Below are positions 21,141-35,014 of a DNA stretch of 64,000 nt, in pieces. The DNA is from Mucilaginibacter sp. (GTDB lineage Bacteria > Bacteroidota > Bacteroidia > Sphingobacteriales > Sphingobacteriaceae), in contig NZ_JAQBOC010000003.1 in NCBI RefSeq assembly GCF_028288225.1, positions 186,001-250,000 of the forward strand. Direction: 5' to 3'. Every line of letters begins with the position of its first letter. Positions within the stretch are counted from its first letter, which is position 1. A program made the translations under genes and the position numbers. A model generated the notes under the pieces. That model saw nothing but the letters and a program-made list of their open reading frames with translations, made no database searches and was not told the DNA's origin.

Positions 21141-22188
21141 GAAGCAAACACTGGTTATTCTTAGTCCCGGCTTTCCGAAAGATAAGGCCGATACCTCCTG
21201 TTTGCCTCCCCAGCAAATCTTTGTGAAAGCATTAAGGGAGGTTTGTCCCGGTCTTAACGTTGTGGTTTTAACTTTTCAATACCCATTTTTTGCAGCCGAA
21301 TATGAATGGCACGGTGTAAAAGTAATTTCCGTTGGAGGTAAAGATAAAGGCCGGATCTTCCGGCTTATCACCTGGCTAAAAGCGTGGTTGATACTAAAAA
21401 GACTCCGCAAAGAATATCACATAATAGGTTTATTAAGCTTTTGGCTTGGCGAATGTGCATTTGTAGGCAGCAGGTTTGCAAAAAAATACAAGTTACCCCA
21501 TTATACCTGGATGCTTGGCCAGGACGCTAAAAAATGGAATAAATATTTCAGGTGGATAAAACCCGGAGGAGATGAACTGATTGCGTTATCAGATTTTATT
21601 GTAAAGGAAGTAAAAAGAAACTATAAAATAACACCTATGCAGGTGATTCCCGTAGGGATTGATACTTCATTGTTTAGCGCCGGACATCACAGAAGAGATA
21701 TTGATATTTTGGGAGCGGGGGCATTAATACCGTTAAAACAGTATGATGTTTTTATTGAGTCTGTAGGTTATTTAAAGGAATTTTACCCGCATATTAAAGC
21801 CATTATTTGTGGCAAAGGGCCCGATATGGAGGGCCTGCAATCATTAGCCCGGACAAAAAATTTAAGTGATAACATAATTTTTAAAGGCGAGCTGCCCCAT
21901 AAAGAAGTGTTAAGATTAATGCAGCGTTCAAAAATATTTTTACACCCGTCAAATTATGAAGGTTTTGGTGCCGTTTTATCCGAAGCTTTGTATAGCGGGG
22001 CACAAGTGGTTTCGTTTTGTAAACCGATGGATAAGAGTTACCGCCACCATCAGGTTGTAAATACTTCAGAAGAAATGAATGCCAAACTTTTATCTATTCT
22101 TAAAGATAAAAAGATAGATCACGAGCCGGTTTTAATGTGTACTATACAGCAAATAGCTAAGAATATGGTCAGCTTGTTTGTTGATTGA
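21130..22188 (+). CDS. Glycosyltransferase family 4
   Basis: 352 residues from ATG 21130, 11 nt inside the end of the flippase gene; the frame is open to a TTG one codon earlier. GT-B fold: the N-terminal half starts LVILSPGFP and the C-terminal half has IDILGAGALIPLKQYDVFI and the donor-binding segment HPSNYEGFGAVLSEALYSG. It should transfer a nucleotide-activated sugar with retention on the cytoplasmic face of the membrane. Coupling to the flippase suggests it helps assemble that transporter's cargo. Its stop codon directly abuts the stop of the convergent glycosyltransferase. Confidence 0.88.
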   Translation: MKHKKQTLVILSPGFPKDKADTSCLPPQQIFVKALREVCPGLNVVVLTFQYPFFAAEYEWHGVKVISVGGKDKGRIFRLITWLKAWLILKRLRKEYHIIGLLSFWLGECAFVGSRFAKKYKLPHYTWMLGQDAKKWNKYFRWIKPGGDELIALSDFIVKEVKRNYKITPMQVIPVGIDTSLFSAGHHRRDIDILGAGALIPLKQYDVFIESVGYLKEFYPHIKAIICGKGPDMEGLQSLARTKNLSDNIIFKGELPHKEVLRLMQRSKIFLHPSNYEGFGAVLSEALYSGAQVVSFCKPMDKSYRHHQVVNTSEEMNAKLLSILKDKKIDHEPVLMCTIQQIAKNMVSLFVD

Positions 22189-23286
22189 CTACAATGATTT
22201 TGCAATTTCTTGAATATGCTTTGCAATTGCCGGAAATGACAGTTTCTCCCTAAAATATCTTAAACATAATTCCCGTTTTTCCTCTAAATCTAATTCACCA
22301 ATTTGATTCAATACATCCAATAACGTAGGTTCATTCCCCGCTTCATATAATATGCCACATTTGCCATTATCTGTTATCATCCTGAATGAAAATATATCAG
22401 TTACAATAGGGATACAACCGCATGACATGGCCTCACAAACTGCTGTGCCGCTTCCTTCATAGTGCGAACCTGATATCAAAAAGTCGGCGCTGTTAAACCA
22501 ATACAGCAGGTCATTGTGAAGAACCTTGCCAATCAATTTAATTGCGTTTCCTTGTGGGTTAGCTTCAAGCAGGGCTTTTATATCGGCAAGCAGTTCATCT
22601 GTATGATAGATCATGTATAAGCGGGCGTCCGGGTGAGCTTTTAAATATTTCAAAAAAGCCCTTACCACATTTAACGGATCTTTGTTAGCATTAAGCCTAC
22701 CCACCCATAAAAAAGCGGGATTGCCTGATACGCCGGTTTTCTGTTCAGCCAACGCTCCTTCAACCGGATGAAAATTAGAAGAAACTTCCATTACTTCGTG
22801 AATTTTTCGGGCGGATGAAATATTGCCTTTTTTTACCCAGTCCAACCCCATATCCATCGAGGCAAACAAGTAGGCATCTGTGTAACGGTCGGCCAGTTTT
22901 TGAGCATATTTTTTGATACCGGGCAGTGGCTTTTCGGCGTGATGATGGACAATGATCTTTGCGTTTTTATTTAAGACGGAACGAAGGAGGATCAACTGAA
23001 TAGGGTTATGTAACCCCTGCACTATCACGACATCCGGTTTTAAACTCTTTATAAACCTGTTTAACTTGAATGGAAAATGCGTTTTTCCCCTGTTTAAGTT
23101 TACAAACTGGTATTCAACACCGTTATGTGAAGCCTCTCCCTCGTAATTAATTTGTTTTACGCTGATAACCCTATTTTCCTTAGCTAAACATTCAAAGATC
23201 CCCGCATAGCCTGCGGTTCTTTTAAACCAGCTTTCGGGTGATTTAAAATCGGGGGAATAACTATAACTTATTGATACATACAGCAT
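22189..23286 (-). CDS. Glycosyltransferase family 4, last gene of the leftward tailoring operon
   Basis: 365 residues. The N-terminal half starts MLYVSISYSYSP and contains PDVVIVQGLHNP. The C-terminal half has FLWVGRLNANKDPLNVVRAF and the donor motif GSHYEGSGTAVCEAMSCG, all typical of GT4 enzymes. It is the distal member of an operon running from 28078 down to 22189, 16 nt after the flavin-reductase-like gene. The stop codon abuts that of the rightward glycosyltransferase with no spacer, so no terminator separates the two transcripts. The sugar and acceptor are unknown. Confidence 0.87.
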   Translation of the reverse strand: MLYVSISYSYSPDFKSPESWFKRTAGYAGIFECLAKENRVISVKQINYEGEASHNGVEYQFVNLNRGKTHFPFKLNRFIKSLKPDVVIVQGLHNPIQLILLRSVLNKNAKIIVHHHAEKPLPGIKKYAQKLADRYTDAYLFASMDMGLDWVKKGNISSARKIHEVMEVSSNFHPVEGALAEQKTGVSGNPAFLWVGRLNANKDPLNVVRAFLKYLKAHPDARLYMIYHTDELLADIKALLEANPQGNAIKLIGKVLHNDLLYWFNSADFLISGSHYEGSGTAVCEAMSCGCIPIVTDIFSFRMITDNGKCGILYEAGNEPTLLDVLNQIGELDLEEKRELCLRYFREKLSFPAIAKHIQEIAKSL

Positions 23287-23302
23287 AAAAGCTTCCCTTA
23301 AT

Positions 23303-24220
23303 TTAAAATAACCCGTCTATACTTTTATAGTTGCTATTCTGAAACTGTAAAAAGCCAACATGGTAAAGGGACGAAGGGTTATTTTTAACCTGTTTTTTAT
23401 TTAAAACTTTGCCAACCATTAACATGTGATAGCCCATTTTTTTATTGGAAATGATCTCTATTTCTTTATAGGAGCCAACAAAATCAGGCACGGGGAATTT
23501 AAACAACTCGCTTTCTGTGGTTTTAAACGGTAAATGATCGTGTGATGCAGGCGACTTACTGGAATGTTTACCCAAATCATAAACCGTATTTATATCAACA
23601 TCATTGGTATCGCACACTACAACTTTTTTTGCTTCAAGAATTCTATCAAGGGTAACATTGGTTGTTCTTAAACCTAATAGGTACATGTCTTCTTCCTGTA
23701 TATATCCATGGATATCCATGGGGAATATATTACAGTAACTATCATCTTTATAGGATACAATTATAATGCTGCGGGGATAGGAATAAAGTGCGCTTATAAC
23801 TTTACGGCTGTGATAAGTATTGGCTTTGGAGCGCAAAAAGTACGCGAACAACACCAGCCTGTGCAAGGCGCTTAACTGATGATTTTTTACTTTTTCAACT
23901 TTATATAAAAATAGAATCCCTTTAGCGGTAGGAACTGCTTCAATTATTGATACAGTAATAGCTGCATTCAATTTATTGCCTTTAAAAAATTGGATCTCAG
24001 TTCCTTTGTTATTGGTTAATGCAGCCTGACCAGAAGGCAGCCATGCTGCCATGCAGAAAGGATCAAGACAGATCATGCTGTTGGTAGATGTTATATCGGC
24101 CTGGCAGGTGCTATTTTTTAAATAAACTTTTTCCTCTATTTCATTAGCGTGCAGCCTTGTTATATAAAAGGTTCTTATTCTTTTATTGTCAAAAAATATT
24201 TTATTTATCAATGAACCCAT
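23303..24220 (-). CDS. Probable flavin reductase-like (FMN-binding split barrel) protein
   Basis: 305 residues, no signal peptide or membrane helix. The second half resembles flavin-reductase-like split barrels: a strand RSIIIVSYKDDSYCNIFPMD, then MYLLGLRTTN, then KKVVVCDTND, and a late FVGSYKEIEIISNKKMGYHM strand pair before MLMVGKV. In that family these surround a bound FMN. The first 120 residues are unlike the classic short reductases and may be an extra domain. It sits one base after the stop of the GNAT gene, within the tailoring operon. A flavin enzyme here would suit an oxidation or reduction on a sugar or lipid, but this is inference and the family call is moderate. Confidence 0.5.
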   Translation of the reverse strand: MGSLINKIFFDNKRIRTFYITRLHANEIEEKVYLKNSTCQADITSTNSMICLDPFCMAAWLPSGQAALTNNKGTEIQFFKGNKLNAAITVSIIEAVPTAKGILFLYKVEKVKNHQLSALHRLVLFAYFLRSKANTYHSRKVISALYSYPRSIIIVSYKDDSYCNIFPMDIHGYIQEEDMYLLGLRTTNVTLDRILEAKKVVVCDTNDVDINTVYDLGKHSSKSPASHDHLPFKTTESELFKFPVPDFVGSYKEIEIISNKKMGYHMLMVGKVLNKKQVKNNPSSLYHVGFLQFQNSNYKSIDGLF

Positions 24221-24221
24221 A

Positions 24222-25172
24222 TCAAAAAGTATCTATATCCGCAGAAGTGAATTTAATTTTATCTATCCGTAAATCTTCACCCAAAACTTTAAATATTACA
24301 GGGAACGAAGGGATGGAATTAAAACGCATAGCAAACAAGCTATGCAAAGAGGTGCCGGGTGATGCATGAAAATGGATCTGCTTTATGCCCAGTTTACCGG
24401 CCAGTTTTTTTAATTCGTATATCATATCATCAAAATCATCTGGCTGTACCGCAATATCACCTATTAAAAGTATGCTGTTAATTTTTACCCATAAAGTTGA
24501 TGTTCCTGCTTTTATAAACTTTGTATTGCTGTAAGTTTTGTAGTTGAAATAATATTCATCGCGGTAAACCCCGCCGCATCCATCATTTAATACCGAATTA
24601 TCAAGCCTGTTTTGTTTTGCCACGTATTTGTTTAAAATACCTTCCTGATAGCTGGTATATAAATTTTTCAAGACGGGAAATTTACCTATGATTCCCTTCC
24701 ACGAAAAATTATCTGTGTGAATAATAAAGCAATCCATTGTATCGGTTATCCGCCAGCCCAGCTTATTTACGAAACCTGGCAACGAATTTTGATTTGGGAA
24801 CCCAAAAAGCAATTGGATCTTCAAATCGCGGCACAGCTGGAAAGTAGTTAACGCGAGCTCAACAAACAAGCCTTTATTGCGGTGATCAGGGTGCGTCATA
24901 GTATCTGCTGATTGTGCAGCAAGAATGATTTTATTGTCCGACTTTACAAAACACGGGATAACTGCATAAAAAGCCATTGGTTGCCGCTGACTATTGTAAG
25001 CAATAAAGCCCGTATATTTAACACCTGTAAACGCAGTATCATATTTTTTTGCAAAAAAACCGGGAATGGCCTGTTTGCCGTAAACTGCAGCATATAATTG
25101 TTCTATATCGGTTAAATTTTCAGTATTTAGCCGTTCTACAATATAATGAATACTTGAATGATTACTATTCAT
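24222..25172 (-). CDS. GNAT family N-acetyltransferase
   Basis: 316 residues. The acetyl-CoA binding region is visible near residues 85-105 (SADTMTHPDHRNKGLFVELAL), where HRNKGL fits the Q/R-x-x-G-x-G/A loop. It is followed by LLFGFPNQNSLPGFVNKLGW, seen in large GNAT proteins of surface-polysaccharide loci. The length suggests a GNAT domain plus a C-terminal extension (about 170-316) that may be a second, degenerate GNAT domain. It overlaps the deacetylase gene by 8 nt and probably acylates an amino group on the sugar made by this locus. Acyl donor and acceptor are unproven. Confidence 0.8.
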   Translation of the reverse strand: MNSNHSSIHYIVERLNTENLTDIEQLYAAVYGKQAIPGFFAKKYDTAFTGVKYTGFIAYNSQRQPMAFYAVIPCFVKSDNKIILAAQSADTMTHPDHRNKGLFVELALTTFQLCRDLKIQLLFGFPNQNSLPGFVNKLGWRITDTMDCFIIHTDNFSWKGIIGKFPVLKNLYTSYQEGILNKYVAKQNRLDNSVLNDGCGGVYRDEYYFNYKTYSNTKFIKAGTSTLWVKINSILLIGDIAVQPDDFDDMIYELKKLAGKLGIKQIHFHASPGTSLHSLFAMRFNSIPSFPVIFKVLGEDLRIDKIKFTSADIDTF

Positions 25173-26172
25173 AACTGCCGGTAATTGTTGCGCGCATTTG
25201 GTTATTAACAGATATAAACGGATTCACCGTTAAACGTTTGCGCATGCTGGGATCTTTATAATCTTCCGCGCTATTAAATTCTGTTGCCAGCAGTTGCTCA
25301 TACCCTGCACTTTTTGCTGTTTCAATAACCTCATTATTGTAAGATCCGTATGGAAATGCGAAGCTGGTTATTGGTTTTTTAATGATATGTTCAAGGTATC
25401 CTTTTGAAAGACTTAGCTCTTCAGCAGCATCATGGATATCAATCCTGGCCAGGTCATTGTGATAATAGCTATGGGCGCCAATAGTTACAAAAGTGGAGGC
25501 GGATAGCTCTTTGATCTGTTCGGTTGTCATTTGCAGCCAGTAATCCTTGTCAGATTGTTTAGTTTTAAAAGGAGCTAAAGGATATAGTTCCTTCATCATC
25601 TCTGCTTTTTCATCAAACCCATAACCTCCTAACCTATCGGCAAGGCTTAAACCATTAAAAGTTGAAATATATTTGTTATGGCGATCTTTTGTATAAAACT
25701 CGCCTTTAAAATGCAATTTGTTAGGGCCGTATTTACTGGCAATGGTTAAAAAATCATTCCACAAAATATCATAACCTGCCGCCTGTATGGCAGTAATGAA
25801 AAAGGTTGCAGGCATTTGATATTTTTCTAACAGAGGCCATACATATTTGTGGTTGTTTGCAAAACCATCATCAAATGTTAAACAGATATTGAATTTATCA
25901 TTGCTGAATTTTTTCTGATAATAGTCATCCAGCGAAATAACATTGAAATACTTTTTATAAAATTTAAGGTGTAATTCAAAAGTTTTCCTGGTAAGGAAAA
26001 GGGTGTTGAATTTTAAATGATCGCGCTCGCAAATGCCATGATACACCAATATCCTGCTTCCCCGCGCTGAGCGATAAAAGCCTTCATACATTCCTAATGT
26101 ATGCCGCAAATCCATCAAAAGGTTTTTAGCCGTCCTGGTTAGTTTTGAACGTATTTTTTGAGATAGGGTCAT
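25165..26172 (-). CDS. Polysaccharide deacetylase (NodB homology, CE4)
   Basis: 335 residues. The NodB domain carries the catalytic pair D101-D102 in CLTFDDGF and the metal-binding HSYYH motif in IGAHSYYHNDL. The late motif FAFPYGSYN is also present. These enzymes use a divalent metal to remove N-acetyl groups from amino sugars. No signal peptide is evident, so it may act in the cytoplasm on a lipid-linked intermediate. It overlaps the amidohydrolase gene by 4 nt upstream and the GNAT gene by 8 nt downstream. Deacetylase followed by acyltransferase suggests replacement of an acetyl group on an amino sugar, which is inference. Confidence 0.88.
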   Translation of the reverse strand: MTLSQKIRSKLTRTAKNLLMDLRHTLGMYEGFYRSARGSRILVYHGICERDHLKFNTLFLTRKTFELHLKFYKKYFNVISLDDYYQKKFSNDKFNICLTFDDGFANNHKYVWPLLEKYQMPATFFITAIQAAGYDILWNDFLTIASKYGPNKLHFKGEFYTKDRHNKYISTFNGLSLADRLGGYGFDEKAEMMKELYPLAPFKTKQSDKDYWLQMTTEQIKELSASTFVTIGAHSYYHNDLARIDIHDAAEELSLSKGYLEHIIKKPITSFAFPYGSYNNEVIETAKSAGYEQLLATEFNSAEDYKDPSMRKRLTVNPFISVNNQMRATITGSYE

Positions 26173-27338
26173 ACTTGTACAGGCTCCTTAATAGTTACGG
26201 GGAAATTAATATCCGGCCGGTATGCTTTTATCTTTTTTATTAATGCTGGCAAATCACCTTTTACATATTTGCATGCGCCGGCTATAAAAACTTTGCTAAA
26301 GCCATACATATCAATACCATACAATCGGGTTAAAATTGATTCATCAAACAACCGGATCTCACCTTTGTGAATAACCAACAATATATCGGCAGGCCTTAGT
26401 TCAAAAAAAGCATCAAGATCTTTTTTGCCAACAGGGTTTTTAGCCACAACTAAGTCGGCATCCTTTCCTTCATCTATACTGCCTGAATTTAATTGCCAGA
26501 TAGTTGCTGCGTTTTGGTTTAAAGTACAATATAAGGCTTCATCGCTAAGCAGCCCCGTCTTTCGGGCTAAACGTAAATGCTCCCATATATCCCAACTACC
26601 GGTTAATGTTGAATCTGTACCAAATAATATTTTGGTATGCTTTTCAAGCCGGTTAACCTGTGCTGTTTTATCTAACAAAAAATAATTAGACCCGGGGCAC
26701 CAAACCAGCGCCTCAAATTTTTCCGCCTGCTTTGCCGACATGGATACTCCATGAATACCGACAAGTTTTCTTTTAAGCAGGTTATATTTTATTAACTCAT
26801 CAATTTCATTAATTGATAGCAAGTCATCGCCTTCACCAACATGAATGTTTACCGGCAGGTTTTTTTTTAAAGGGTTATTTAGCTTGATTTTCCAGTTCTT
26901 TTCAAATTGTACAGAGTGTAAACAATGACTTTCTTCAAAAACAGTAATCAACGCATTTTTCAATCCCGGCTTTTCGCCATGGTTAACTACAGTGGTAATA
27001 CCACAAAGCAGGTTTTTATACATGCCCCATTCAGATCGTAACGGGGCAGGGATTTGCAGTATTTCAGCTATTTCATTTTTATAAGCTTTGTGGATATAGT
27101 TGCCCCACTCAGTGTAGTTGCTATATTTTTTATTGCCTAATTGAGGGAATAGGTTAAAATCTAAATGATCATGAGAGTTTATAAGTCCCGGAAAAATAAT
27201 GGCATCATTAAAAGTTAGCTGTAAATGGCTTGCCTGGCTTTTGGAATCAGCAGGCGTAATATCCGCTAGCTTCCCATTACAAACCCTGACATTTACAGGC
27301 TCGTTATTGCCAATTATATTTACATTGCCCAGAATCAT
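26169..27338 (-). CDS. Amidohydrolase family protein (TIM-barrel metal hydrolase)
   Basis: 389 residues. The metal site is recognisable: H56 and H58 in GLINSHDHLDFN, a later histidine in VNIHVGEGDD, one in VGIHGVSM, and the catalytic aspartate in LFGTDSTLTGSWD. This is the pattern of the cytosine/adenosine deaminase and chlorohydrolase branch (subtype III). The C-terminal small domain (GSIDEGKDADLVVAK) is also typical. Such enzymes deaminate or hydrolyse ring amines or amides, which is unusual in a glycan locus. It overlaps the methyltransferase gene by 1 nt and the deacetylase gene by 4 nt, so tight co-expression is expected. The substrate is unknown. Confidence 0.87.
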   Translation of the reverse strand: MILGNVNIIGNNEPVNVRVCNGKLADITPADSKSQASHLQLTFNDAIIFPGLINSHDHLDFNLFPQLGNKKYSNYTEWGNYIHKAYKNEIAEILQIPAPLRSEWGMYKNLLCGITTVVNHGEKPGLKNALITVFEESHCLHSVQFEKNWKIKLNNPLKKNLPVNIHVGEGDDLLSINEIDELIKYNLLKRKLVGIHGVSMSAKQAEKFEALVWCPGSNYFLLDKTAQVNRLEKHTKILFGTDSTLTGSWDIWEHLRLARKTGLLSDEALYCTLNQNAATIWQLNSGSIDEGKDADLVVAKNPVGKKDLDAFFELRPADILLVIHKGEIRLFDESILTRLYGIDMYGFSKVFIAGACKYVKGDLPALIKKIKAYRPDINFPVTIKEPVQV

Positions 27339-28078
27339 TATTCTCTCCTGAAATGAATTCCGTAAATTATCGGAAAGCCTTTAAATTTATTGTAAACATG
27401 CAATGCACGTTGCTCCAGGTAATAATCTCTTACCGTTTCATCAATTTGCTTTACAACCTCATTGACTATTTTGAAATTGTTTTTCAAAAGTATTTCCCTA
27501 ACGGTATCAGTTGAATGCACAAAATTACGTACTGCAATATGGACGTTATTGTGTTTGAAGGTCCGCTGACCGCCTGAAGCTAATGCATCGGGATGAAAAT
27601 CGGTAATAATAATATCTCCGGTAGTTTTTAAGATCCTGCTCCATGCCTGTAGAGCTTCCTCTATATTTTCAATATGGGCAACGGTTAATGTAGATAATAT
27701 CACATCATAAGTGTTATCAGCAATCGCAGAAAAATGGTTATCTGTAATGGTATGGGTATTGGCTTGGGGGAATTTTTCTTTCAATTTGTGAAGCATTCCG
27801 GGCGAAACATCAAAGCCGGTTAATCCTGCAATATCCTTTTCTAAAATTTTAGGCCAGTGCCTGCCTGTGCCGCAGCCTATATCAGCAATTTGCTTATCTT
27901 TTATATCAATAGTATCCAGCAATTCACCAAAAACCAATTCATCCAGATCAAGCATCAGGTTACCGGGTTGCGCGTCGTAGTTATCGGCCCAAATATCATA
28001 GGCTTCCACAACGTCCTTCTCTTTTATCGATGACGGAAAGATATTTTTATTAATATATTTTTTTAGCGTTGCTAGCAA
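27338..28078 (-). CDS. Class I SAM-dependent methyltransferase, first gene of the leftward tailoring operon
   Basis: 246 residues. Motif I is IADIGCGTGRHWPKIL, the acidic residue after strand 2 is in LTGFDVSPGML, and motif post-I is YDVILSTLTVAHIEN. This matches Methyltransf_11-type small-molecule methyltransferases. It heads an operon of at least six genes with 1-8 nt overlaps or short gaps. The upstream 275 nt are shared with the divergent radical SAM operon. The acceptor is unknown. Confidence 0.88.
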   Translation of the reverse strand: MLATLKKYINKNIFPSSIKEKDVVEAYDIWADNYDAQPGNLMLDLDELVFGELLDTIDIKDKQIADIGCGTGRHWPKILEKDIAGLTGFDVSPGMLHKLKEKFPQANTHTITDNHFSAIADNTYDVILSTLTVAHIENIEEALQAWSRILKTTGDIIITDFHPDALASGGQRTFKHNNVHIAVRNFVHSTDTVREILLKNNFKIVNEVVKQIDETVRDYYLEQRALHVYNKFKGFPIIYGIHFRRE

Positions 28079-28146
28079 AACAGGGTGTAATTTTTAATGT
28101 GAAACCAATAGTTTGAATATAAGGATTACGTGCGATTATTTATGAT

Positions 28147-28260
28147 GGTTGCCCTATGCAATTTTATTTGTTAAAGCAGGCAACCTAAGTTTTAAGCGAG
28201 GCGTAATTACTACTGAGTAATTGTTTAATTGGGGTTAAATTGGATTTGTGTGATTTGTGT
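28147..28260. promoter_or_regulatory. Divergent control region between the two tailoring operons
   Basis: The spacer 28079-28353 must hold promoters for both directions. It contains a 7-bp inverted repeat (28147-28153 with 28179-28185) and a perfect tandem 9-mer gatttgtgt (28243-28251 and 28252-28260). I could not pick out convincing -33/-7 pairs. Confidence 0.4.
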
Positions 28261-28268
28261 GAACGATG

Positions 28269-28318
28269 TCTCCGTTAGGGAAATACCGGTGGGATATAAA
28301 CCACCGGTATTACGGAGA
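28269..28318 (+). promoter_or_regulatory. Strong two-part stem-loop in the leader of the radical SAM operon
   Basis: An 11-bp perfect stem (28282-28292 with 28301-28311, 8-nt loop) stacks on a 7-bp outer stem (28269-28275 with 28312-28318), with a 6-nt bulge on one side only. It ends 35 nt before the ATG of the first B12/radical SAM gene. It has no T run, so it is not a standard terminator. A leader control element, a protein-binding site or a palindromic repeat are all possible. Confidence 0.6.
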
Positions 28319-28353
28319 TTAACCCCATTGGCGAATATATTGTGAAGTATAAG

Positions 28354-29856
28354 ATGAGTAAGATACTACTGTTTAACCCCAAAAGCGCTATTAATAAATA
28401 CCGGATCCCGAATTCTATTTTAAACATTGCCGCATCGGTTGATGGAAAATATGATTGGGTAATAGTTGATGGTAATTGTGAAGCAGACCCCATAAAAAAA
28501 ATAGAATCATATTTAAACACGGGAGAATTCAAATACCTCGGTTTTTCTGTAATGCCCGGCCCGCAATTACGACAGGCAATTTTGGCTGCAAAAGCTATAA
28601 AAGAAAAATTTTCCTATACAACGATGATATGGGGTGGGTATTTTCCATCAAATCAGCCAAATTCGGTGCTTTACTCGGGTTATGTTGATTTTATTATCAA
28701 CGGTCCCGGAGATCATGCTTTCCCAAATTTGATCGATGCTTTGGAGCACGATCAGCCGTTTGAGTTTATAAAAAACCTGATCTATAAAGCGCCTGACGGC
28801 AGCATCTCAAAAACGGCAAAAGAAGACCTGATAGACCAGGATTTGTTACCGCCATTGCCATATGATAAGCTGAATACATTTTACCCTATTCCTAAATTTT
28901 TAGGGAAAACATACCTGGGCCAAAAAACACTTGCCTACCATTCCAGTATTGGTTGCCCGTTCACCTGTTCATTTTGCGCGGTTGTGCCAATTTACGAGGC
29001 CCGGTGGAAAGGTAAATCGGCACAAGCTGTTTATAAGGACGTAAAATACATAAAGGATAAGTGGGGCGCTGATGCCATTGAATTTCATGACAACAATTTC
29101 TTCGTTTCAGAAAAACGGGCGGTTGAGTTTTCAAGGCTGATGAAAGATGAAAACATGACCTGGTGGGGAATGGCAAGGATAGATACCATGAGCAAATTTA
29201 AGGATGCATCATTAACTGCCATTCGTGAATCAGGCTGTAAAATCATCTTTTTTGGTGCAGAAAGCGGCAATAATGAAGTGCTGGCGCAGATGGATAAGGG
29301 TGGTACTCAAACCGGGAACCAGATCATTGAATTTGCAGAACGGCTTAAAAAATTTGATATCATCCCTGAATACTCGTTTGTACTGGGTACCCCAGCCCCA
29401 ACACCCGAAAAAGTACAGGCTCAGATTGATTTCGAGATTGATTTTATAAAAAAGGTTAAGCATGTAAATCCCCGTACCGAGATCATTATTTATACTTACA
29501 GTCCGGTGCCCACAGAGGGATCGGAAATGTATAAACAGGTTTTAGCCAGCGGTTTTAGGTTCCCGCAGACATTGGAAGATTGGATCAGCCCGGCATGGGA
29601 GAGCTTTGATCTGCGGAAGAATCCGCTTACACCATGGCTCACTCCCGAGATGATAGACAAGATCAGAAACTTTGAAACGGTGCTGAATGGCGTTTATCCT
29701 ACGGTTACTGATATCCGCCTTAACCTGATCAAGAGAAAAGCGATACAATTGGTAGCCGGGTTACGCTATAGGGTAAACCTTTACAAATATCCGTATGAGA
29801 TAAAGCTGCTGCAAAAAGTTTGGAGATATCGTCAGCCGGAGACCCAGGGATTTTAA
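28354..29856 (+). CDS. B12-binding domain radical SAM protein (first)
   Basis: 500 residues from ATG 28354; a GTG at 28342 is an alternative. The N-terminal 165 residues form a cobalamin-binding-like Rossmann domain (FSVMPGPQLRQAI, MIWGGYFPS, DFIINGPGDHAFPNLI). The DxHxxG lower-ligand motif is absent, as in many enzymes of this class. The radical SAM core has the cluster motif C201-x3-C205-x2-C208 (GCPFTCSFC), then GADAIEFHDNNFF and IFFGAESGNNEVL. The class includes BchE and HpnR-like enzymes that methylate or rearrange unactivated carbon. It heads a five-gene operon with two methyltransferases and two other radical SAM genes, and the long hairpin lies in its leader. The reaction is unknown. 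Confidence 0.9.
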   Translation: MSKILLFNPKSAINKYRIPNSILNIAASVDGKYDWVIVDGNCEADPIKKIESYLNTGEFKYLGFSVMPGPQLRQAILAAKAIKEKFSYTTMIWGGYFPSNQPNSVLYSGYVDFIINGPGDHAFPNLIDALEHDQPFEFIKNLIYKAPDGSISKTAKEDLIDQDLLPPLPYDKLNTFYPIPKFLGKTYLGQKTLAYHSSIGCPFTCSFCAVVPIYEARWKGKSAQAVYKDVKYIKDKWGADAIEFHDNNFFVSEKRAVEFSRLMKDENMTWWGMARIDTMSKFKDASLTAIRESGCKIIFFGAESGNNEVLAQMDKGGTQTGNQIIEFAERLKKFDIIPEYSFVLGTPAPTPEKVQAQIDFEIDFIKKVKHVNPRTEIIIYTYSPVPTEGSEMYKQVLASGFRFPQTLEDWISPAWESFDLRKNPLTPWLTPEMIDKIRNFETVLNGVYPTVTDIRLNLIKRKAIQLVAGLRYRVNLYKYPYEIKLLQKVWRYRQPETQGF

Positions 29857-29872
29857 TTAATACGCTGTGAAC

Positions 29873-30610
29873 ATGACTGAATTAAACAGGGAGATTATGG
29901 AAGTAGAAGCCCAAGGTTCAGATTTTGGTGAACTTTATATTGATGTAAGATATAAAGAGAAACGTGTTTTGTCAGACGGGCAGGTAATGTTTTTGCCTGA
30001 TATTGAAGCCACGCATATTCATTTTAAAGAATGGCAGACCAGGAAGCGGTCGGCTCAAAGACTGATCGATTATCTCAAAGAAAAAAACAAACCGCTTAAT
30101 ATTTTAGAAATAGGCTGTGGCAATGGCTGGCTGTCGTCAAAGCTGTTAACTATTAAAAATTCAAGAGTAACAGGGCTTGATATTAATGAGCCGGAAATCA
30201 TGCAGGCTAAAAGGGTTTTTCAAAAAGATAATCTCGAGTTTATCTGCGGAAGTTTTGAATCCAGAATGTTTTTGAATGAAAGGTTTGACGTTATCCTATT
30301 CGCTGCTTCCATACAATATTTCCCATCTGTTAAAAGCATTCTGGAAAGCGCGTTTTTGTGTTTGAATAAAAATGGGGAGGTCCACATAATGGACACCAAT
30401 TTTTACCCACCCAATGAAGTTGCCGATGCAGCGAAACGGACGGAAGAGTATTATGAAATGTTAGGGTATCCGGAAATGGCGGCGCATTATTTTCATCATG
30501 CTATAAATGACCTGCAGCCGTTTAATTATAAGATATTGTTTAATCCGAAGCGCTTAATTAATAAGATCAGTAAAAAAGATCCTTTTTATTGGGTCGTAGT
30601 AAAACACTAA
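29873..30610 (+). CDS. Class I SAM-dependent methyltransferase
   Basis: 245 residues from ATG 29873, with a GTG two codons earlier (29867) as an alternative. Motif I is LNILEIGCGNGWLSSKLL, the acidic strand-2 residue is in VTGLDINEPE, and the post-I segment is FDVILFAASIQYF. It fits the Methyltransf_11/23 group. The N-terminal 70 residues, before the SAM fold, include FLPDIEATHIHF and may help bind substrate. It lies 16 nt after the first B12/radical SAM gene and 6 nt before the next radical SAM gene. The acceptor is unknown. Confidence 0.87.
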   Translation: MTELNREIMEVEAQGSDFGELYIDVRYKEKRVLSDGQVMFLPDIEATHIHFKEWQTRKRSAQRLIDYLKEKNKPLNILEIGCGNGWLSSKLLTIKNSRVTGLDINEPEIMQAKRVFQKDNLEFICGSFESRMFLNERFDVILFAASIQYFPSVKSILESAFLCLNKNGEVHIMDTNFYPPNEVADAAKRTEEYYEMLGYPEMAAHYFHHAINDLQPFNYKILFNPKRLINKISKKDPFYWVVVKH

Positions 30611-30616
30611 AATTAT

Positions 30617-31663
30617 ATGGTAGGGCAATCCTTATATCGTTCATATAACAGGTATCGTACTTTAAAAACAAGTATCATATCTGCATTGCCTATTGTTATA
30701 TTAATGCCCCACAGCGCCTGCAATTGCCGTTGTGTTATGTGCGATATCTGGAAGGACAACAAAAACCTGAAACAGCTTACGGAGCATGATCTGACCGGTT
30801 TGCTGGCGGCCTTAAAAAAATTCGGAACGCAGCAGGTATCAATGTCGGGAGGGGAAGCCTTACTGAATGTAAATTTTTTCAGACTTTGCGAGATCCTTAA
30901 GCAGCATAAAATAAAGGTCACCCTGCTTACAACCGGGCTTACCATTAAAAAGAATGCCGATCAGATCTTAGAATTGGTTAATGACCTGATTGTTTCTTTA
31001 GATGGCGATGAAGCCTTGCATGATGCTATCCGGAATATTCCAAATGCTTTTAGTAAGCTAAAGGAGGGGGTTGAGTATATCAAATCCATCAATCCAAACT
31101 ACAGGATAACTGCCCGCACCGTAATTCATCGCCTTAATTTCAGGAACTGGGAAGCCATAATTAATGAAGCAAGATTGATGGGGATTGACCAGGTGAGCTT
31201 TTTGCCGGCGGATGTAAGCAGCCATGCTTTTAACAGGCAAATGGCCTGGGAAGAGCCAAAGCAGCACGAGATCTTAATTTCAGAACGTGAGCTGCCCGAA
31301 TTGCAGGATGTAATAACCCGCATAATTAATAATGAGGGTAACTTTAAAACAAGGTTTATTGCTGAATCGAAAGAAAAGATAAGGGACATTTATCAGTATT
31401 ATGCTGCGTTTTATGGTTTGAACCCGTTCCCGTTTAAAAAATGCAATGCCCCCTGGGTATCAACCGTAATTGAAGCCGATGGAAATGTGCGGCCATGCTT
31501 TTTTCACGACGTGATAGGGAATATCAGGGATGCATCTTTGGAAACTATCCTGAATAGTGAAAGCGCCGTTAATTTCAGAAGATCACTGGATATGAGTAAA
31601 AATGCAGCCTGCATAAAATGCGTATGCTCGTTAAATCTTTCGCCTTTTGCAAAACTTGCATAA
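30617..31663 (+). CDS. Radical SAM protein with a SPASM/twitch-like C-terminal domain
   Basis: 348 residues. The cluster motif is C35-x3-C39-x2-C42, with an extra cysteine at 37. SQVSMSGGEALLN-type GGE and LIVSLDGDE motifs follow, as in MoaA/PqqE-like enzymes. The C-terminal part has further cysteines in KKCNAPWVST, GNVRPCFFHD and ACIKCVC, consistent with a second iron-sulfur cluster. Fewer cysteines remain at the end than a full SPASM domain needs, so it may be a twitch-type variant. No small peptide precursor gene is visible beside it. It lies between the methyltransferase and the second B12/radical SAM gene, 10 nt from the latter. Confidence 0.87.
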   Translation: MVGQSLYRSYNRYRTLKTSIISALPIVILMPHSACNCRCVMCDIWKDNKNLKQLTEHDLTGLLAALKKFGTQQVSMSGGEALLNVNFFRLCEILKQHKIKVTLLTTGLTIKKNADQILELVNDLIVSLDGDEALHDAIRNIPNAFSKLKEGVEYIKSINPNYRITARTVIHRLNFRNWEAIINEARLMGIDQVSFLPADVSSHAFNRQMAWEEPKQHEILISERELPELQDVITRIINNEGNFKTRFIAESKEKIRDIYQYYAAFYGLNPFPFKKCNAPWVSTVIEADGNVRPCFFHDVIGNIRDASLETILNSESAVNFRRSLDMSKNAACIKCVCSLNLSPFAKLA

Positions 31664-31673
31664 TTTATAAAGT

Positions 31674-33134
31674 ATGAAAAGTATATTGTTTTCACATTCT
31701 TACTTTTTACGTTTTGACCCAAAACAATGGGCCTTAGGGCAACCATACCCGCCATTGGGCACCATATATGCTGCAGCATATATGCGCGAAAATGATTACG
31801 CAGTATCGCTTTTTGACACCATGTTTGTAAGCGATCCGGAAGAAGTTAAAGCTGCATTAACGCAAAGCAAGCCTGATTTTTTTGTGATCTACGATGATGG
31901 GTTTAATTACCTCACCAAAATGTGCCTCACCAACATGCGCGAGGCGGCCTTCAGCATGTGTAAGATTGCCAAAGCGGCAGGATGTACTGTAATCGTTTCG
32001 AGCTCCGACTCAACCGACCGCTACGAGCAATATTTAAATGAAGGCGCCGATTTTGTAATAATAGGAGAGGCGGAGCATACTTTACTGGAGCTAACCAATC
32101 ATATTGAAAATGGCCAGAGTGAGCATGATACCATACAAGGGCTCGCTTATGTTAAGGATGGAAAGATAGTTAAAACCCCGGGTCGCCCTGTTTTGAAAGA
32201 TCTGGATAGCTTGCCGTTACCAGCCTGGGATTTGATTGATATGGATGCATACCGGCAAACATGGTTAAAGCACGCTGGGTATTTCTCTCTTAACATGAGC
32301 ACTACCCGTGGCTGCCCTTTTAAATGTAACTGGTGCGCAAAGCCAATTTATGGTAACCGCTATAATTCAAGAAGCCCTGAACATGTTGTTGCTGAAATTA
32401 AATTGCTTAAAGAACGCTACCGGATGGATCACATTTGGTTTTGTGATGATATTTTTGGTTTAAAGCCGGGTTGGGTTAAAGAGCTTGCGCTGCTTTTACA
32501 CAAGGAAAATATTAAGATCCGGTTTAAGATCCAATCCAGGGCTGATCTGCTCGCTGATGAAGGTACGGTAAAAGCGCTTGCGGACTCGGGCTGCGAAAAC
32601 GTATGGATAGGCGCCGAAAGTGGCTCGCAGAAAATTCTGGATGCCATGGATAAAGGTATTATGGTTGAACAGATCCGCGAAGCTACCCGCCTGATGAAAG
32701 AGAATGGCATAAAGCCATCCTTTTTTATCCAGTTTGGTTACCCCGGTGAGCTGAAGGAGGATATCCGGCTGACCATCAACATGATCAATGAGCTTTTGCC
32801 TTTTGAAATAGGCATTTCAGTATCATACCCCTTGCCTGGTACATTGTTTTATGAAAGGGTGAAAGCCGATCTGAAGAAAAAAACAAACTGGACAGATTCA
32901 GATGAAATGGCCCTGATGTTCAGCAATACTTTTCCACCATCGTATTACAAGCAATTGCATAAATACGTACATCAAAACTATCATAAACACCTGGCAAAAA
33001 ACAGCCTGGTTAAACTAATAAATAACCCGCTGAGCGCTAATATTAAAAGCATCAGGAAAGCCGTTTCAGTTTTATACCATGCACCGGCAACGCTTATTGA
33101 AGGGATGAAGCTAAGAAAACTGGAGGAAGCATAA
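31674..33134 (+). CDS. B12-binding domain radical SAM protein (second)
   Basis: 486 residues. The N-terminal cobalamin-binding-like domain (about 1-160) starts with a YPPLGTIYAAAYMREN helix and has FVIIGEAEHTLLEL. The radical SAM core has C214-x3-C218-x2-C221 (RGCPFKCNWC), then HIWFCDDIFGLKPGW and VWIGAESGSQKILDAMDKG, a pattern close to BchE-like enzymes and hopanoid methylase-like enzymes. It is only distantly like the first B12/radical SAM protein of the operon, so the two probably act on different steps. Its stop overlaps the next ATG by one base. The substrate is unknown; a lipid or glycolipid would fit both family and context. Confidence 0.9.
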   Translation: MKSILFSHSYFLRFDPKQWALGQPYPPLGTIYAAAYMRENDYAVSLFDTMFVSDPEEVKAALTQSKPDFFVIYDDGFNYLTKMCLTNMREAAFSMCKIAKAAGCTVIVSSSDSTDRYEQYLNEGADFVIIGEAEHTLLELTNHIENGQSEHDTIQGLAYVKDGKIVKTPGRPVLKDLDSLPLPAWDLIDMDAYRQTWLKHAGYFSLNMSTTRGCPFKCNWCAKPIYGNRYNSRSPEHVVAEIKLLKERYRMDHIWFCDDIFGLKPGWVKELALLLHKENIKIRFKIQSRADLLADEGTVKALADSGCENVWIGAESGSQKILDAMDKGIMVEQIREATRLMKENGIKPSFFIQFGYPGELKEDIRLTINMINELLPFEIGISVSYPLPGTLFYERVKADLKKKTNWTDSDEMALMFSNTFPPSYYKQLHKYVHQNYHKHLAKNSLVKLINNPLSANIKSIRKAVSVLYHAPATLIEGMKLRKLEEA

Positions 33135-33955
33135 TGGAAACTGTCCAGGCAAATATCAATGAGCAACATGCAGAATCGGCGTTTACCACGCAATCCATAA
33201 TTTTTGATGAGTTGTATGCAGGCAATACCATTATTAAATATAAGCGGGAACGGGTTCGCAACCATGTTTTACAGCTCTTAGCACCGGGCAGTTCTATCCT
33301 TGAGGTAAACAGCGGTACCGGCGAAGATGCTTTGTTTTTTGCACAAAAAGGATTTAAGGTACATGCTACAGACCTGTCAACAGGGATGCAAAATGAACTG
33401 AAAAGGAAGGTTGCACTGAACGGTATGGAAGAGCAGGTAAGCACTGAAATATGTTCCTATACGCAACTTGACCAGTTAAAAAACAAAGGGCTATATGATC
33501 ATATCTTTTCCAACTTTGCCGGCCTTAATTGTACAGATGAGCTGGATAAAGTATTGGCATCATTCAACGATCTGCTAAAACCTGGTGGAACGGTAACACT
33601 TGTCATTTTACCAAAATTTTGCCTGTGGGAAACACTGCTGGTATTTAAAGGCAGATTCCGTACAGCGTTTAGAAGGTTCTTTAGCAGGAATGGGAGCAAA
33701 GCCCATATTGAAGGCGTTTATTTTAAATGCTGGTATTACAATCCTTCATTTATTGTAAACCAATTGAAAGATCAGTTTAACCTGCTGGGAATTGAAGGCC
33801 TGTGCACAATTGTGCCGCCATCATATATTGAAGGTTTTGCAGAAAAGCATCCTTCCGTTTACCGGTTTTTGAAAAATAAGGAAGATAAGCTAAAAAGCTC
33901 CCGGCCCTGGAAATACATCGGTGATTATTATATCATCTCGTTAAAAAAGAAATAA
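33134..33955 (+). CDS. Class I SAM-dependent methyltransferase, last gene of the radical SAM operon
   Basis: 273 residues. The motif I region reads ILEVNSGTGEDALFFAQKG, where NSGTGED replaces the common GCGTG. The acidic residue is in VHATDLSTGM and the post-I segment is YDHIFSNFAGLNC. The C-terminal 100 residues (RFFSRNGSKAHIEGVYFKCW onwards) are an extension outside the SAM fold. Its ATG overlaps the preceding stop by one base, which implies translational coupling to the second B12/radical SAM protein and suggests consecutive steps. A palindromic repeat follows the stop. Confidence 0.85.
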   Translation: METVQANINEQHAESAFTTQSIIFDELYAGNTIIKYKRERVRNHVLQLLAPGSSILEVNSGTGEDALFFAQKGFKVHATDLSTGMQNELKRKVALNGMEEQVSTEICSYTQLDQLKNKGLYDHIFSNFAGLNCTDELDKVLASFNDLLKPGGTVTLVILPKFCLWETLLVFKGRFRTAFRRFFSRNGSKAHIEGVYFKCWYYNPSFIVNQLKDQFNLLGIEGLCTIVPPSYIEGFAEKHPSVYRFLKNKEDKLKSSRPWKYIGDYYIISLKKK

Positions 33956-34057: not shown

Positions 34058-35014
34058 TTAATGTGCAAGGCTGTCTTCATAAGCCCGCAAGATCCGGTCT
34101 ACCCTAAACTGGTATCTTGCCAATAATTTGCTTTGAAAATTCTTAGGGTCGGGCTTTGCATAATGTTTGCCGGTATCCATTCCCATAATTATACCATGAC
34201 TGTTCAGCTTTTTTTGCTGCGTTTTTTTTAGCCATCGGTTGCCTGTAATTTTCATCAGCATATCATCAATGGTATCGCCTGCCCGGTTGTTAAATAGCCA
34301 TTCTAAAAGGTTTTTTAAAAACCCACCCTTAACCGGCTTTGCCGAGGCTATCCGCATGTTTTTGTTTGGAAGATATTCCCTGGTCCAGGTATTTGCGGTA
34401 TAAAACCGTTCAAACACGGTATCACCCTGCAGCGGGATCAATGTGCCTATTTCAATTGCGGTGTATAAATTCTTCTCTGCAATTTCCAGTTGCTGCTCAT
34501 CAATGTAATAGTTCATGCAAAACAAATGCTCCTTATTAACCAAAAAGGTTAGTTTTTTAAAGCAGTGCATTATGGTCCGCGCTATCCACAGCTTGTTTTT
34601 GGCGGTAATAATAAAAAGGTCAACATCCGAATTTTCATCCGCGAAGTTTTTTGATAGTGAGCCCGATATGGCTATTCCGCGTACATAAGGGAACCTGATC
34701 AGGAGGCTTCCCACCTTTTCGGCTATTTTAATTAATCCGGCTGCCTTTTTGTTGCCTTCGTTTCTTCGCACTACCAGGTATTGGTCGTTTTTTAAAGTAT
34801 AAAACTTATCAAATTGATAAATTATGCCGCTTTCAAGCAGGGATTTTAATGCCTGATCAAATGTGTCATAATCGTGCTTGTTTTTCAGGAACAGGTAAAT
34901 TTCCGCCCTGCATAAGGGGTAGTCAAACAGATCAAAATAAGCCAGGGTTTCTAATATATTTTCTTTAATTACTGACAAGCTTTTACTGATTAATGGATAT
35001 GGATTATGTTGCAT
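34058..35014 (-). CDS. Nucleotidyltransferase-domain protein with N-terminal helical domain
   Basis: 318 residues. A pol-beta-type nucleotidyltransferase motif is clear: G118-S119 followed by D130 and D132 (SGSLSKNFADENSDVDLF). The N-terminal 75 residues (ETLAYFDLFDYPLCRAEIYLF, then ALKSLLESGIIYQ) look like a winged-helix domain. The rest is helical with no recognised domain. The third catalytic acidic residue cannot be placed with confidence. It is the last gene of the leftward glycan operon, 76 nt after the O-antigen-ligase-like gene. It might nucleotidylate a small molecule or a protein; classical sugar-nucleotide synthesis is not expected from this fold. Confidence 0.75.
   Translation of the reverse strand: MQHNPYPLISKSLSVIKENILETLAYFDLFDYPLCRAEIYLFLKNKHDYDTFDQALKSLLESGIIYQFDKFYTLKNDQYLVVRRNEGNKKAAGLIKIAEKVGSLLIRFPYVRGIAISGSLSKNFADENSDVDLFIITAKNKLWIARTIMHCFKKLTFLVNKEHLFCMNYYIDEQQLEIAEKNLYTAIEIGTLIPLQGDTVFERFYTANTWTREYLPNKNMRIASAKPVKGGFLKNLLEWLFNNRAGDTIDDMLMKITGNRWLKKTQQKKLNSHGIIMGMDTGKHYAKPDPKNFQSKLLARYQFRVDRILRAYEDSLAH

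What the first reader, a model, noticed from the sequence alone, without database searches (positions are those of the whole stretch)
22189..33955. Two divergent tailoring operons with three radical SAM enzymes inside a glycan locus
Eleven genes in two tightly packed divergent operons combine enzymes rarely seen together: two different B12-binding radical SAM proteins, a radical SAM/SPASM-like protein, three SAM methyltransferases, an amidohydrolase, a polysaccharide deacetylase, a large GNAT protein, a flavin-reductase-like protein and one glycosyltransferase. Genes overlap by 1-8 nt in several places. Flippases, polymerases and other glycosyltransferases flank the set. The parts suggest chemistry on unactivated carbons plus N-acyl exchange on a sugar or glycolipid. 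I know of no described pathway with this set.
Basis: partly seen in the sequence, partly recalled or inferred. Interest (0 to 1): 0.78.

Follow-up and report, generated by a model that had tools for sequence, protein, structure and literature searches.

The report
Swappable radical-enzyme glycan tailoring cluster
A bacterium close to Mucilaginibacter carries a block of genes that recurs in scattered families of Bacteroidota, with a constant core of radical enzymes and neighbours that are swapped in and out; it likely makes an unusual modified sugar for the cell surface, a product predicted here and not yet seen.

Summary
In detail: eleven intact genes in two tight divergent operons at 22189-33955. 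The set is no chance assortment. In 251 genomes of the family, the amidohydrolase (21 genomes) and the first B12/radical SAM protein (20) co-occur in 19, divergent and within 1.5 kb each time. Of 395 Bacteroidota genomes, 9 of the 10 with the amidohydrolase also hold that protein. Flavin-reductase-like, GNAT, deacetylase and MT2 genes come and go. The 'amidohydrolase' is adenosine-deaminase-like by sequence profile and predicted fold. With its partner MT1 it is replaced, near the B12 enzyme, by an NPPY-type methyltransferase: 67 loci with the deaminase, 9 with the NPPY enzyme, none with both, 2 with neither, of 78. A palindrome found once in the 6.77-Mb assembly sits between the operons. The likely role is radical C-modification and methylation of a lipid-linked sugar, then export. 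No described pathway turned up in the literature listings seen. The product is unknown.

The parts
28354..29856 (+). B12a: B12-binding-like/radical SAM protein (500 aa from ATG 28354; a GTG at 28342 also possible)
   Evidence: PF04055 43.4 bits, B12-binding 29.8 below cut-off; CxxxCxxC C201/C205/C208 conserved; 71-98% identity in the 80 loci kept of 145 relatives
31674..33134 (+). B12b: second B12-binding-like/radical SAM protein
   Evidence: PF04055 84.3 bits; C214/C218/C221 conserved; 53 of 54 nearby loci by ORF, the 54th by tblastn; 14 of 15 distant loci, two of these at 33-35% identity
33134..33955 (+). MT3: class I SAM methyltransferase, overlaps the B12b stop
   Evidence: Methyltransf_25 46.8 bits; 54 of 54 and 14 of 15 loci
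34058..35014 (-).
26169..27338 (-). AmiH: adenosine-deaminase-like amidohydrolase (COG0402 type)
27338..28078 (-). MT1: methyltransferase paired with AmiH
   Evidence: PF08241 57 bits; in 65 of 67 AmiH loci and 0 of 11 without AmiH
30617..31663 (+). radical SAM/SPASM protein
   Evidence: PF04055 58.1 and PF13186 48.3 bits; 50 of 54 and 6 of 15 loci
29873..30610 (+). MT2: methyltransferase, optional (GTG at 29867 also possible)
   Evidence: 36 of 54 loci; at least 15 changes on the B12a tree
25165..26172 (-). polysaccharide deacetylase, optional, travels with GNAT
   Evidence: PF01522 86.1 bits; D101-D102 and H234/H238 conserved; 20 of 54 loci, all 20 with GNAT
24222..25172 (-). GNAT acyltransferase, optional
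   Evidence: PF13527 31.7 over 25; 22 of 54 loci
23303..24220 (-). flavin-reductase-like protein, optional, weak family call
   Evidence: PF01613 18.3 below cut-off 27; 22 of 54 loci
22189..23286 (-). GT4 glycosyltransferase
   Evidence: PF00534 70.6 bits; 48 of 54 loci
21127..22188 (+). GT4 glycosyltransferase that travels with the set
   Evidence: PF00534 85.8 bits; 50 of 54 loci
19470..21140 (+). ABC exporter, MsbA/PglK-like
   Evidence: PF00005 102.6 bits; best NCBIfam MsbA 205 against cut-off 602, PglK 178 against 1000; 48 of 54 and 2 of 15 loci
28147..28185 (.). perfect palindrome GGTTGCC-N25-GGCAACC, candidate shared operator, with outer arms TACG (28127-28130) and CGTA (28202-28205)
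   Evidence: one site in the window (chance mean 0.02) and one in the 6.77-Mb assembly; exact in 41 of 78 loci, within 1 mismatch per arm in 59 of 78, against 0 and 40 of 1560 control stretches
28284..28309 (+). hairpin TACCGGTGG/CCACCGGTA in the leader of the B12a operon
   Evidence: 8 pairs, 6 with two-sided changes, in 24 chosen sequences; 96.2% of cells paired against 81.5% shuffled and at most 64.6% slid; no Rfam match
35091..37461 (-). Wzy-like polymerase/ligase (35091-36356) and GT (36340-37461): nearer-relative glycan context
   Evidence: PF04932 55.4 bits; DUF1972/GT4; each in 40 of 54 and 1 of 15 loci

Best explanation
The two divergent operons belong to one gene cluster that recurs, with a constant core, in scattered families of Bacteroidota and likely makes a radically modified, methylated sugar unit on a lipid carrier for export to the cell surface. 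Inferred steps: a sugar unit is made by the cluster's glycosyltransferases; the constant core (B12a, B12b, MT3, usually the nucleotidyltransferase-like protein) would change its carbon skeleton by C-methylation or ring chemistry and methylate it; a swappable module near B12a would then either deaminate (AmiH with MT1) or N-methylate (NPPY enzyme) an exocyclic amino group; an optional deacetylase/GNAT pair would exchange the N-acyl group; and the ABC exporter (Wzx elsewhere) would flip the unit for surface assembly. Shown: gene content, intact catalytic motifs, co-conservation, module swap, conserved cis-elements. Not shown: every substrate and every reaction.
For: Co-occurrence and co-location of AmiH and B12a: 19 shared of 21 and 20 in 251 genomes, divergent and 859-1440 bp apart in 19 of 19; 9 of 10 AmiH genomes hold B12a among 395. 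Core kept in loci where B12a is only 46-70% identical: B12b 14, MT3 14, NT 12 of 15. Glycan context: GTs, ABC, Wzy_C, Wzx in the window; in relatives, families whose scanned representatives are a sugar-1-phosphate transferase, PMT_2, GT87 and GT9. AmiH against NPPY enzyme exclusive in 78 B12a loci (77 distinct), at least 6 changes on the tree. Palindrome found once in the assembly and leader hairpin in the divergent gap. The Dyadobacter frigoris locus, which holds the set but for the flavin-reductase-like and ABC genes, is nested within Mucilaginibacter in the B12a tree, as expected of transfer as a unit.
Against: No substrate or product evidence. No sugar-1-phosphate transferase on the window's contig; the genome's six matches lie on other contigs. 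In distant loci the window's GT/ABC/Wzy genes are mostly absent and other families stand there, so a glycan end product is less certain than the core. B12 binding is not secure (domain at or below cut-off). L154 holds both AmiH and the NPPY enzyme, without B12a or MT1. L133 has B12a but no B12b or MT3. Co-occurrence p-values ignore kinship of the genomes, and the own assembly has 6.11% contamination.
Confidence: 0.5

Rival explanations
1. The cluster makes a secreted small molecule (aminoglycoside- or nucleoside-like) that the ABC protein exports; the polysaccharide genes are only neighbours.
For: The best PDB sequence match of both B12 enzymes is the apramycin enzyme AprD4 and the SPASM protein also matches cytosylglucuronate decarboxylase; the NT core resembles aminoglycoside nucleotidyltransferases, weakly; ABC present in 48 of 54 loci.
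Against: Several glycosyltransferases, Wzy and membrane GT families recur; no aminocyclitol- or nucleoside-forming gene was noticed among the ORFs annotated here, though none was searched for; the window's ABC is seen in only 2 of 15 distant loci.
Confidence: 0.2
2. The product is a membrane lipid head group, in the manner of hopanoid cyclitol ether synthesis (HpnJ-like ring chemistry on a lipid-bound sugar).
For: HpnJ is the best NCBIfam family of both B12 enzymes (103.7 and 158.3 bits); a GT, a deacetylase and a radical SAM protein are also parts of that pathway (recalled).
Against: Both scores are far below HpnJ's cut-off of 577.6; the deacetylase is optional (20 of 54, 0 of 15); no hopanoid-specific gene was noticed in the ORFs annotated here (not searched for as such).
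Confidence: 0.15
3. AmiH only clears by-products (5'-deoxyadenosine, SAH or MTA) of the SAM enzymes around it and is no pathway step.
For: Closest folds and profile hits are adenosine-type deaminases (SAH/MTA activity of TM0936 recalled); 5'-deoxyadenosine is called a toxic radical SAM by-product (PMC6079011, start of abstract seen in the listing).
Against: It is tied to MT1 (65 of 67 loci) and replaced by a methyltransferase rather than by another scavenger; 11 of 78 B12a loci do without AmiH.
Confidence: 0.3
4. The radical SAM proteins mature a ribosomal peptide (RiPP).
For: SPASM and B12/radical SAM proteins with methyltransferases are common in RiPP clusters (recalled).
Against: No small ORF family of 20-110 aa recurs widely in the gaps: of the twelve widest families printed, the widest is in 11 of 55 sequences, in the members printed near the locus edge; the widest in the divergent gap is in 7 and overlaps the palindrome in the window.
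Confidence: 0.05
5. Chance neighbours in a glycan locus.
For: GNAT, deacetylase, flavin-reductase-like and MT2 genes do come and go.
Against: Core co-occurrence and co-location, conserved palindrome and the Dyadobacter locus.
Confidence: 0.02

Closest known systems
HpnJ (hopanoid cyclitol ether synthesis), with HpnI glycosyltransferase, HpnK deacetylase and HpnH radical SAM protein (pathway recalled)
   Same: B12-binding/radical SAM enzyme with a GT, a deacetylase and a second radical SAM protein; HpnJ is the best NCBIfam match of both B12 enzymes
   Different: Scores 103.7 and 158.3 against a cut-off of 577.6; two B12 enzymes, three methyltransferases, a deaminase, an exporter and polymerase context
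Radical SAM tailoring in aminoglycosides (GenK, AprD4 and the like; roles recalled)
   Same: Radical chemistry on sugars; AprD4 (6fd2) is the best PDB match of both B12 enzymes
   Different: Those are soluble antibiotic pathways; here the genes sit in surface-glycan loci and are not equivalogs (AprD4 model 34.9 and 93.2 bits against 500)
MTA/SAH/adenosine deaminases (TM0936, 4f0s, 4gbd) and aminofutalosine deaminase (7lkk)
   Different: 14-21% identity in the structural alignments, below the curated cut-offs shown (best 43.9 against 320), part of a two-gene module with MT1
Wzx/Wzy-type surface polysaccharide loci
   Same: GTs, Wzx, Wzy, and in relatives a sugar-1-phosphate transferase
   Different: A conserved radical SAM core with a swappable tailoring periphery, not seen described in the literature listings

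Membership tests
HpnJ | Score over the curated NCBIfam cut-off (577.6) | tested here: not met
   103.7 and 158.3 bits
Cobalamin-dependent radical SAM enzymes | CxxxCxxC cluster motif in a radical SAM core | tested here: met
   C201/205/208 in B12a and C214/218/221 in B12b conserved in 97% or more of 97 and 87 aligned sequences, window included
Cobalamin-dependent radical SAM enzymes | B12-binding domain | tested here: inconclusive
   29.8 and 27 bits against 32.1; 32.2 and 30.1 in the genome scan
MTA/SAH/adenosine deaminase type amidohydrolases | Fold and HxH, H, HxxE, H, D metal/catalytic set | tested here: met
MTA/SAH/adenosine deaminase type amidohydrolases | Over a curated cut-off of a deaminase family | tested here: not met
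   Best 43.9 against 320, aminofutalosine deaminase family; 25 of 39 families shown
MTA/SAH/adenosine deaminase type amidohydrolases | Deaminase activity on an adenosine derivative | not testable with these tools
   Needs enzyme assay
NPPY-type N-methyltransferases (replacement gene in relatives) | NPPY motif in a class I methyltransferase | tested here: met
   10 of 10 sequences; MT1, MT2, MT3 of the window lack it; for the one scanned, best NCBIfam models are PRK14968 and HemK2 types, below cut-off
RiPP cluster | Conserved precursor peptide in the cluster | tested here: not met
   Small-ORF scan of 54 loci and the window
Wzx/Wzy surface polysaccharide locus | Wzx flippase and Wzy polymerase over cut-off | tested here: met
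   PF01943 44.2 over 28.2; PF04932 55.4 over 31.7
Wzx/Wzy surface polysaccharide locus | Initiating sugar-1-phosphate transferase in the locus | tested here: inconclusive
   None on the window's contig, six on other contigs; ORF family u1 in 13 of 80 related loci, PF02397 in the one scanned
Aminoglycoside nucleotidyltransferase-like (NT gene) | NTase fold with paired catalytic acids | tested here: inconclusive

The most novel reading that the evidence does not exclude
A new class of surface glycoconjugate whose sugar carries a nucleobase-like (amidine or adenine-type) amino group built with the help of radical SAM enzymes, which lineages finish in two alternative ways: deamination by the AmiH-MT1 module or N-methylation by an NPPY methyltransferase. 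The swap near B12a, the adenosine-deaminase fold and the usual preference of NPPY enzymes for planar amino nitrogens (recalled) all point at one exocyclic amino group.
Probability: 0.15. Interest if true: 0.88.

Novelty: new variant of a known kind. Interest (0 to 1): 0.62.

Why it matters
If the reading holds, several families of Bacteroidota share an undescribed route that brings radical carbon chemistry, known from antibiotics and hopanoids, into surface glycan making, with a constant core and a modular periphery that would diversify the cell surface. The block is in named, isolated strains (for example Mucilaginibacter gossypiicola, M. lappiensis, Dyadobacter frigoris), so the product can be sought directly by deletion and mass spectrometry.

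Tried and rejected
RiPP reading: small-ORF scan found no widely conserved precursor. Riboswitch: no Rfam family at gathering score in 18000-42000; E-value mode not run. Bacteroidota promoter consensus (TTTG-N-TAnnTTTG, recalled): no site in the divergent gap, 3 in the window against 2.86 expected. Plasmid relatives: nine records, best places 24.4-25.5% identical to B12a; none for AmiH. NT fold: no Foldseek match at E 0.001 or better; winged-helix and ANT matches are near background, so a role as regulator or as nucleotidyltransferase stays open; no solved relative by profile. Literature: eight answered searches; two searches found no paper, and of the rest I saw titles and abstract starts, some lists capped (for example 15 of 3,908); no paper was opened.

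Limits of the counts. The 80 loci were chosen for B12a (best 80 of 145), so B12a presence there is by construction; 54 of the 80 had 9 kb on both sides. Of the outside genes only the aquaporin gene 18514 (7 of 54) is a fair neighbour control, and it lies at the edge of the flank; HK 17050 (1), sigma 45140 (3) and Wzx 41359 (1) are mostly beyond it. L094 and L126 are one contig, so the 78 loci are 77 distinct and the 67 with AmiH are 66. L094's 'missing' B12b and the u59 family are artefacts of my ORF caller (an antisense ORF was kept). The first palindrome control (22 exact and 87 near matches in 1560 random stretches) could overlap the true site; a clean one gave 0 and 40 of 1560. In the hairpin test, shuffles reached the observed number of two-sided pairs in 95 of 500 and of pair types in 57 of 500; cells paired, two-sided cells and covariation score were reached in 0 of 500. 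The first AmiH/MTS change count used unchecked states for short loci and was redone with checked ones (same value 6). For u5 and u195, membrane proteins near the set, the representatives scanned had no Pfam match.
Full report
1. What is there. The eleven ORFs are intact at the stated places, with gaps of -8 to +16 nt within each operon. Catalytic motifs are intact and conserved: CxxxCxxC in all three radical SAM proteins, SPASM cysteines, the DD/HxxxH set of the deacetylase, and the metal set of the amidohydrolase (what the motifs mean is recalled). The window lies in a 6.77-Mb assembly; the nearest named relative of the first B12/radical SAM protein (B12a) is Mucilaginibacter sp. OK098, 98% identical.

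2. Is it more than chance? In 251 genomes of the family, AmiH was found at E 2.6e-121 or better in 21 (a 22nd match, E 1e-4, covers 106 residues at 30%) and B12a at E 1e-100 or better in 20; 19 hold both. In all 19 the two genes are divergent on one contig, 859-1440 bp apart. The two AmiH-only genomes (G089, G155) still hold B12b, MT3, the nucleotidyltransferase-like gene (NT) and glycosyltransferases. Across 395 genomes of the phylum B12a is in 17 (E 1e-60) and AmiH in 10 (E 1e-20), 9 shared. The hypergeometric values (2.6e-25 and 4e-13) ignore kinship. In G537, the one AmiH genome without B12a, NT, B12b and MT3 lie near AmiH (L154).

3. Core and periphery. A scan of the genome collection gave 145 stretches that encode a B12a relative; the best 80 were kept. 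Of these, 54 have 9 kb on both sides. In the 54: MT3 54, B12b 53 (54 with tblastn), AmiH 52, MT1 50, SPASM 50, GT 21127 50, GT 22189 48, ABC 48, NT 43, Wzy 40, GT 36340 40, MT2 36, FlavR 22, GNAT 22, PDA 20 (all 20 with GNAT); the aquaporin gene just outside, 7. In 15 further loci from distant genomes (B12a 46-70% identical): B12b 14, MT3 14, NT 12, AmiH 6, MT1 6, SPASM 6, MT2 6, GT 21127 6, GT 22189 3, ABC 2, FlavR 1, GNAT 0, PDA 0; in two of them B12b is only 33-35% identical. So the deep core is B12a, B12b, MT3 and NT, with AmiH-MT1 next. By median identity over the 54 loci B12a leads the sixteen genes compared (82%), with GT 36340 close behind (81), then B12b 75, SPASM 74, MT3 70; AmiH is at 57, MT2 at 52. 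FlavR, GNAT, PDA and MT2 each need at least 13-15 changes on the B12a tree, a quick tree. The Dyadobacter frigoris locus carries the set except the flavin-reductase-like and ABC genes and lies within a supported group of Mucilaginibacter in that tree, consistent with transfer as a block.

4. Context. Near relatives share GT4, ABC exporter and Wzy. Some add a family whose scanned member is a sugar-1-phosphate transferase (u1, 13 of 80 loci) or a PMT_2-type membrane protein (u2, 12 of 80). Distant loci have families whose scanned members are GT87 (8 loci) and GT9 (7 loci). The kinds change but stay with lipid-linked glycan assembly, which is why I read the product as a lipid-linked sugar; this is inference.

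6. A module swap. Among 78 B12a loci with 3 kb on both sides (77 distinct), 67 have AmiH and none of these has the small methyltransferase 'MTS'; 9 of the 11 without AmiH have MTS; L099 and L139 have neither. MT1 is present in 65 of the 67 and in 0 of 11. All ten MTS sequences (nine in B12a loci, one in L154) carry NPPY; MT1-MT3 of the window do not. NPPY enzymes usually methylate planar amino or amide nitrogens (recalled). The swap needs at least 6 changes on the tree. The exception is L154, which has both but lacks B12a and MT1. This speaks against AmiH as a mere scavenger and suggests that both modules act on one amino group. It is the boldest inference here and is untested.

7. Regulation. 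Between the operons lies GGTTGCC-N25-GGCAACC at 28147-28185: one site in the window (chance mean 0.02) and one in the assembly. It is exact in 41 of 78 related loci with enough upstream sequence, within one mismatch per arm in 59, and with outer TACG/CGTA arms in 51; control stretches away from the gap gave 0 and 40 of 1560. The 19 loci without it are mainly the more distant ones. It is also present in L141 and L142, which lack B12a. Downstream, a hairpin in the B12a leader shows two-sided changes in 6 of 8 pairs in 24 chosen sequences; 96.2% of cells pair, against 81.5% in shuffles and at most 64.6% with slid partners, while two of the five measures were reached by 95 and 57 of 500 shuffles. 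Both elements suggest joint control of the two operons; neither was tested.

8. Known or new. In the rows shown, no window protein scanned reaches a curated NCBIfam cut-off. Closest by function type are HpnJ-type hopanoid chemistry and aminoglycoside radical SAM tailoring, both well below membership. Eight answered literature searches listed no such cluster; that covers only the open-licence library, titles and abstract starts, some lists capped. I file it as a new variant of surface-glycan loci.

Noticed in passing
window 28147-28185: Perfect palindrome GGTTGCC-N25-GGCAACC, found once in the 6.77-Mb assembly, conserved in the same divergent gap of related loci: candidate operator of an unknown regulator.
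   Followed up: partly
window 28284-28309: Hairpin with two-sided changes in the leader of the B12a operon; no Rfam family. Possible attenuator or regulatory leader.
   Followed up: partly
window 34058-35014: NT protein model joins an N-terminal winged helix to a nucleotidyltransferase-like core; it might be a regulator of the cluster rather than a tailoring enzyme.
   Followed up: partly
L053 (Dyadobacter frigoris): Most of the cluster in a Dyadobacter that is nested within Mucilaginibacter in the B12a tree, consistent with transfer between families.
   Followed up: partly
L100, L106, L128, L129, L130, L132, L133, L137, L140: AmiH-MT1 replaced near B12a by an NPPY-type methyltransferase.
   Followed up: yes
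G000:C51:70823-71113: A further B12-binding-domain protein (481-aa open frame) about 143 kb away on the same contig.
   Followed up: no
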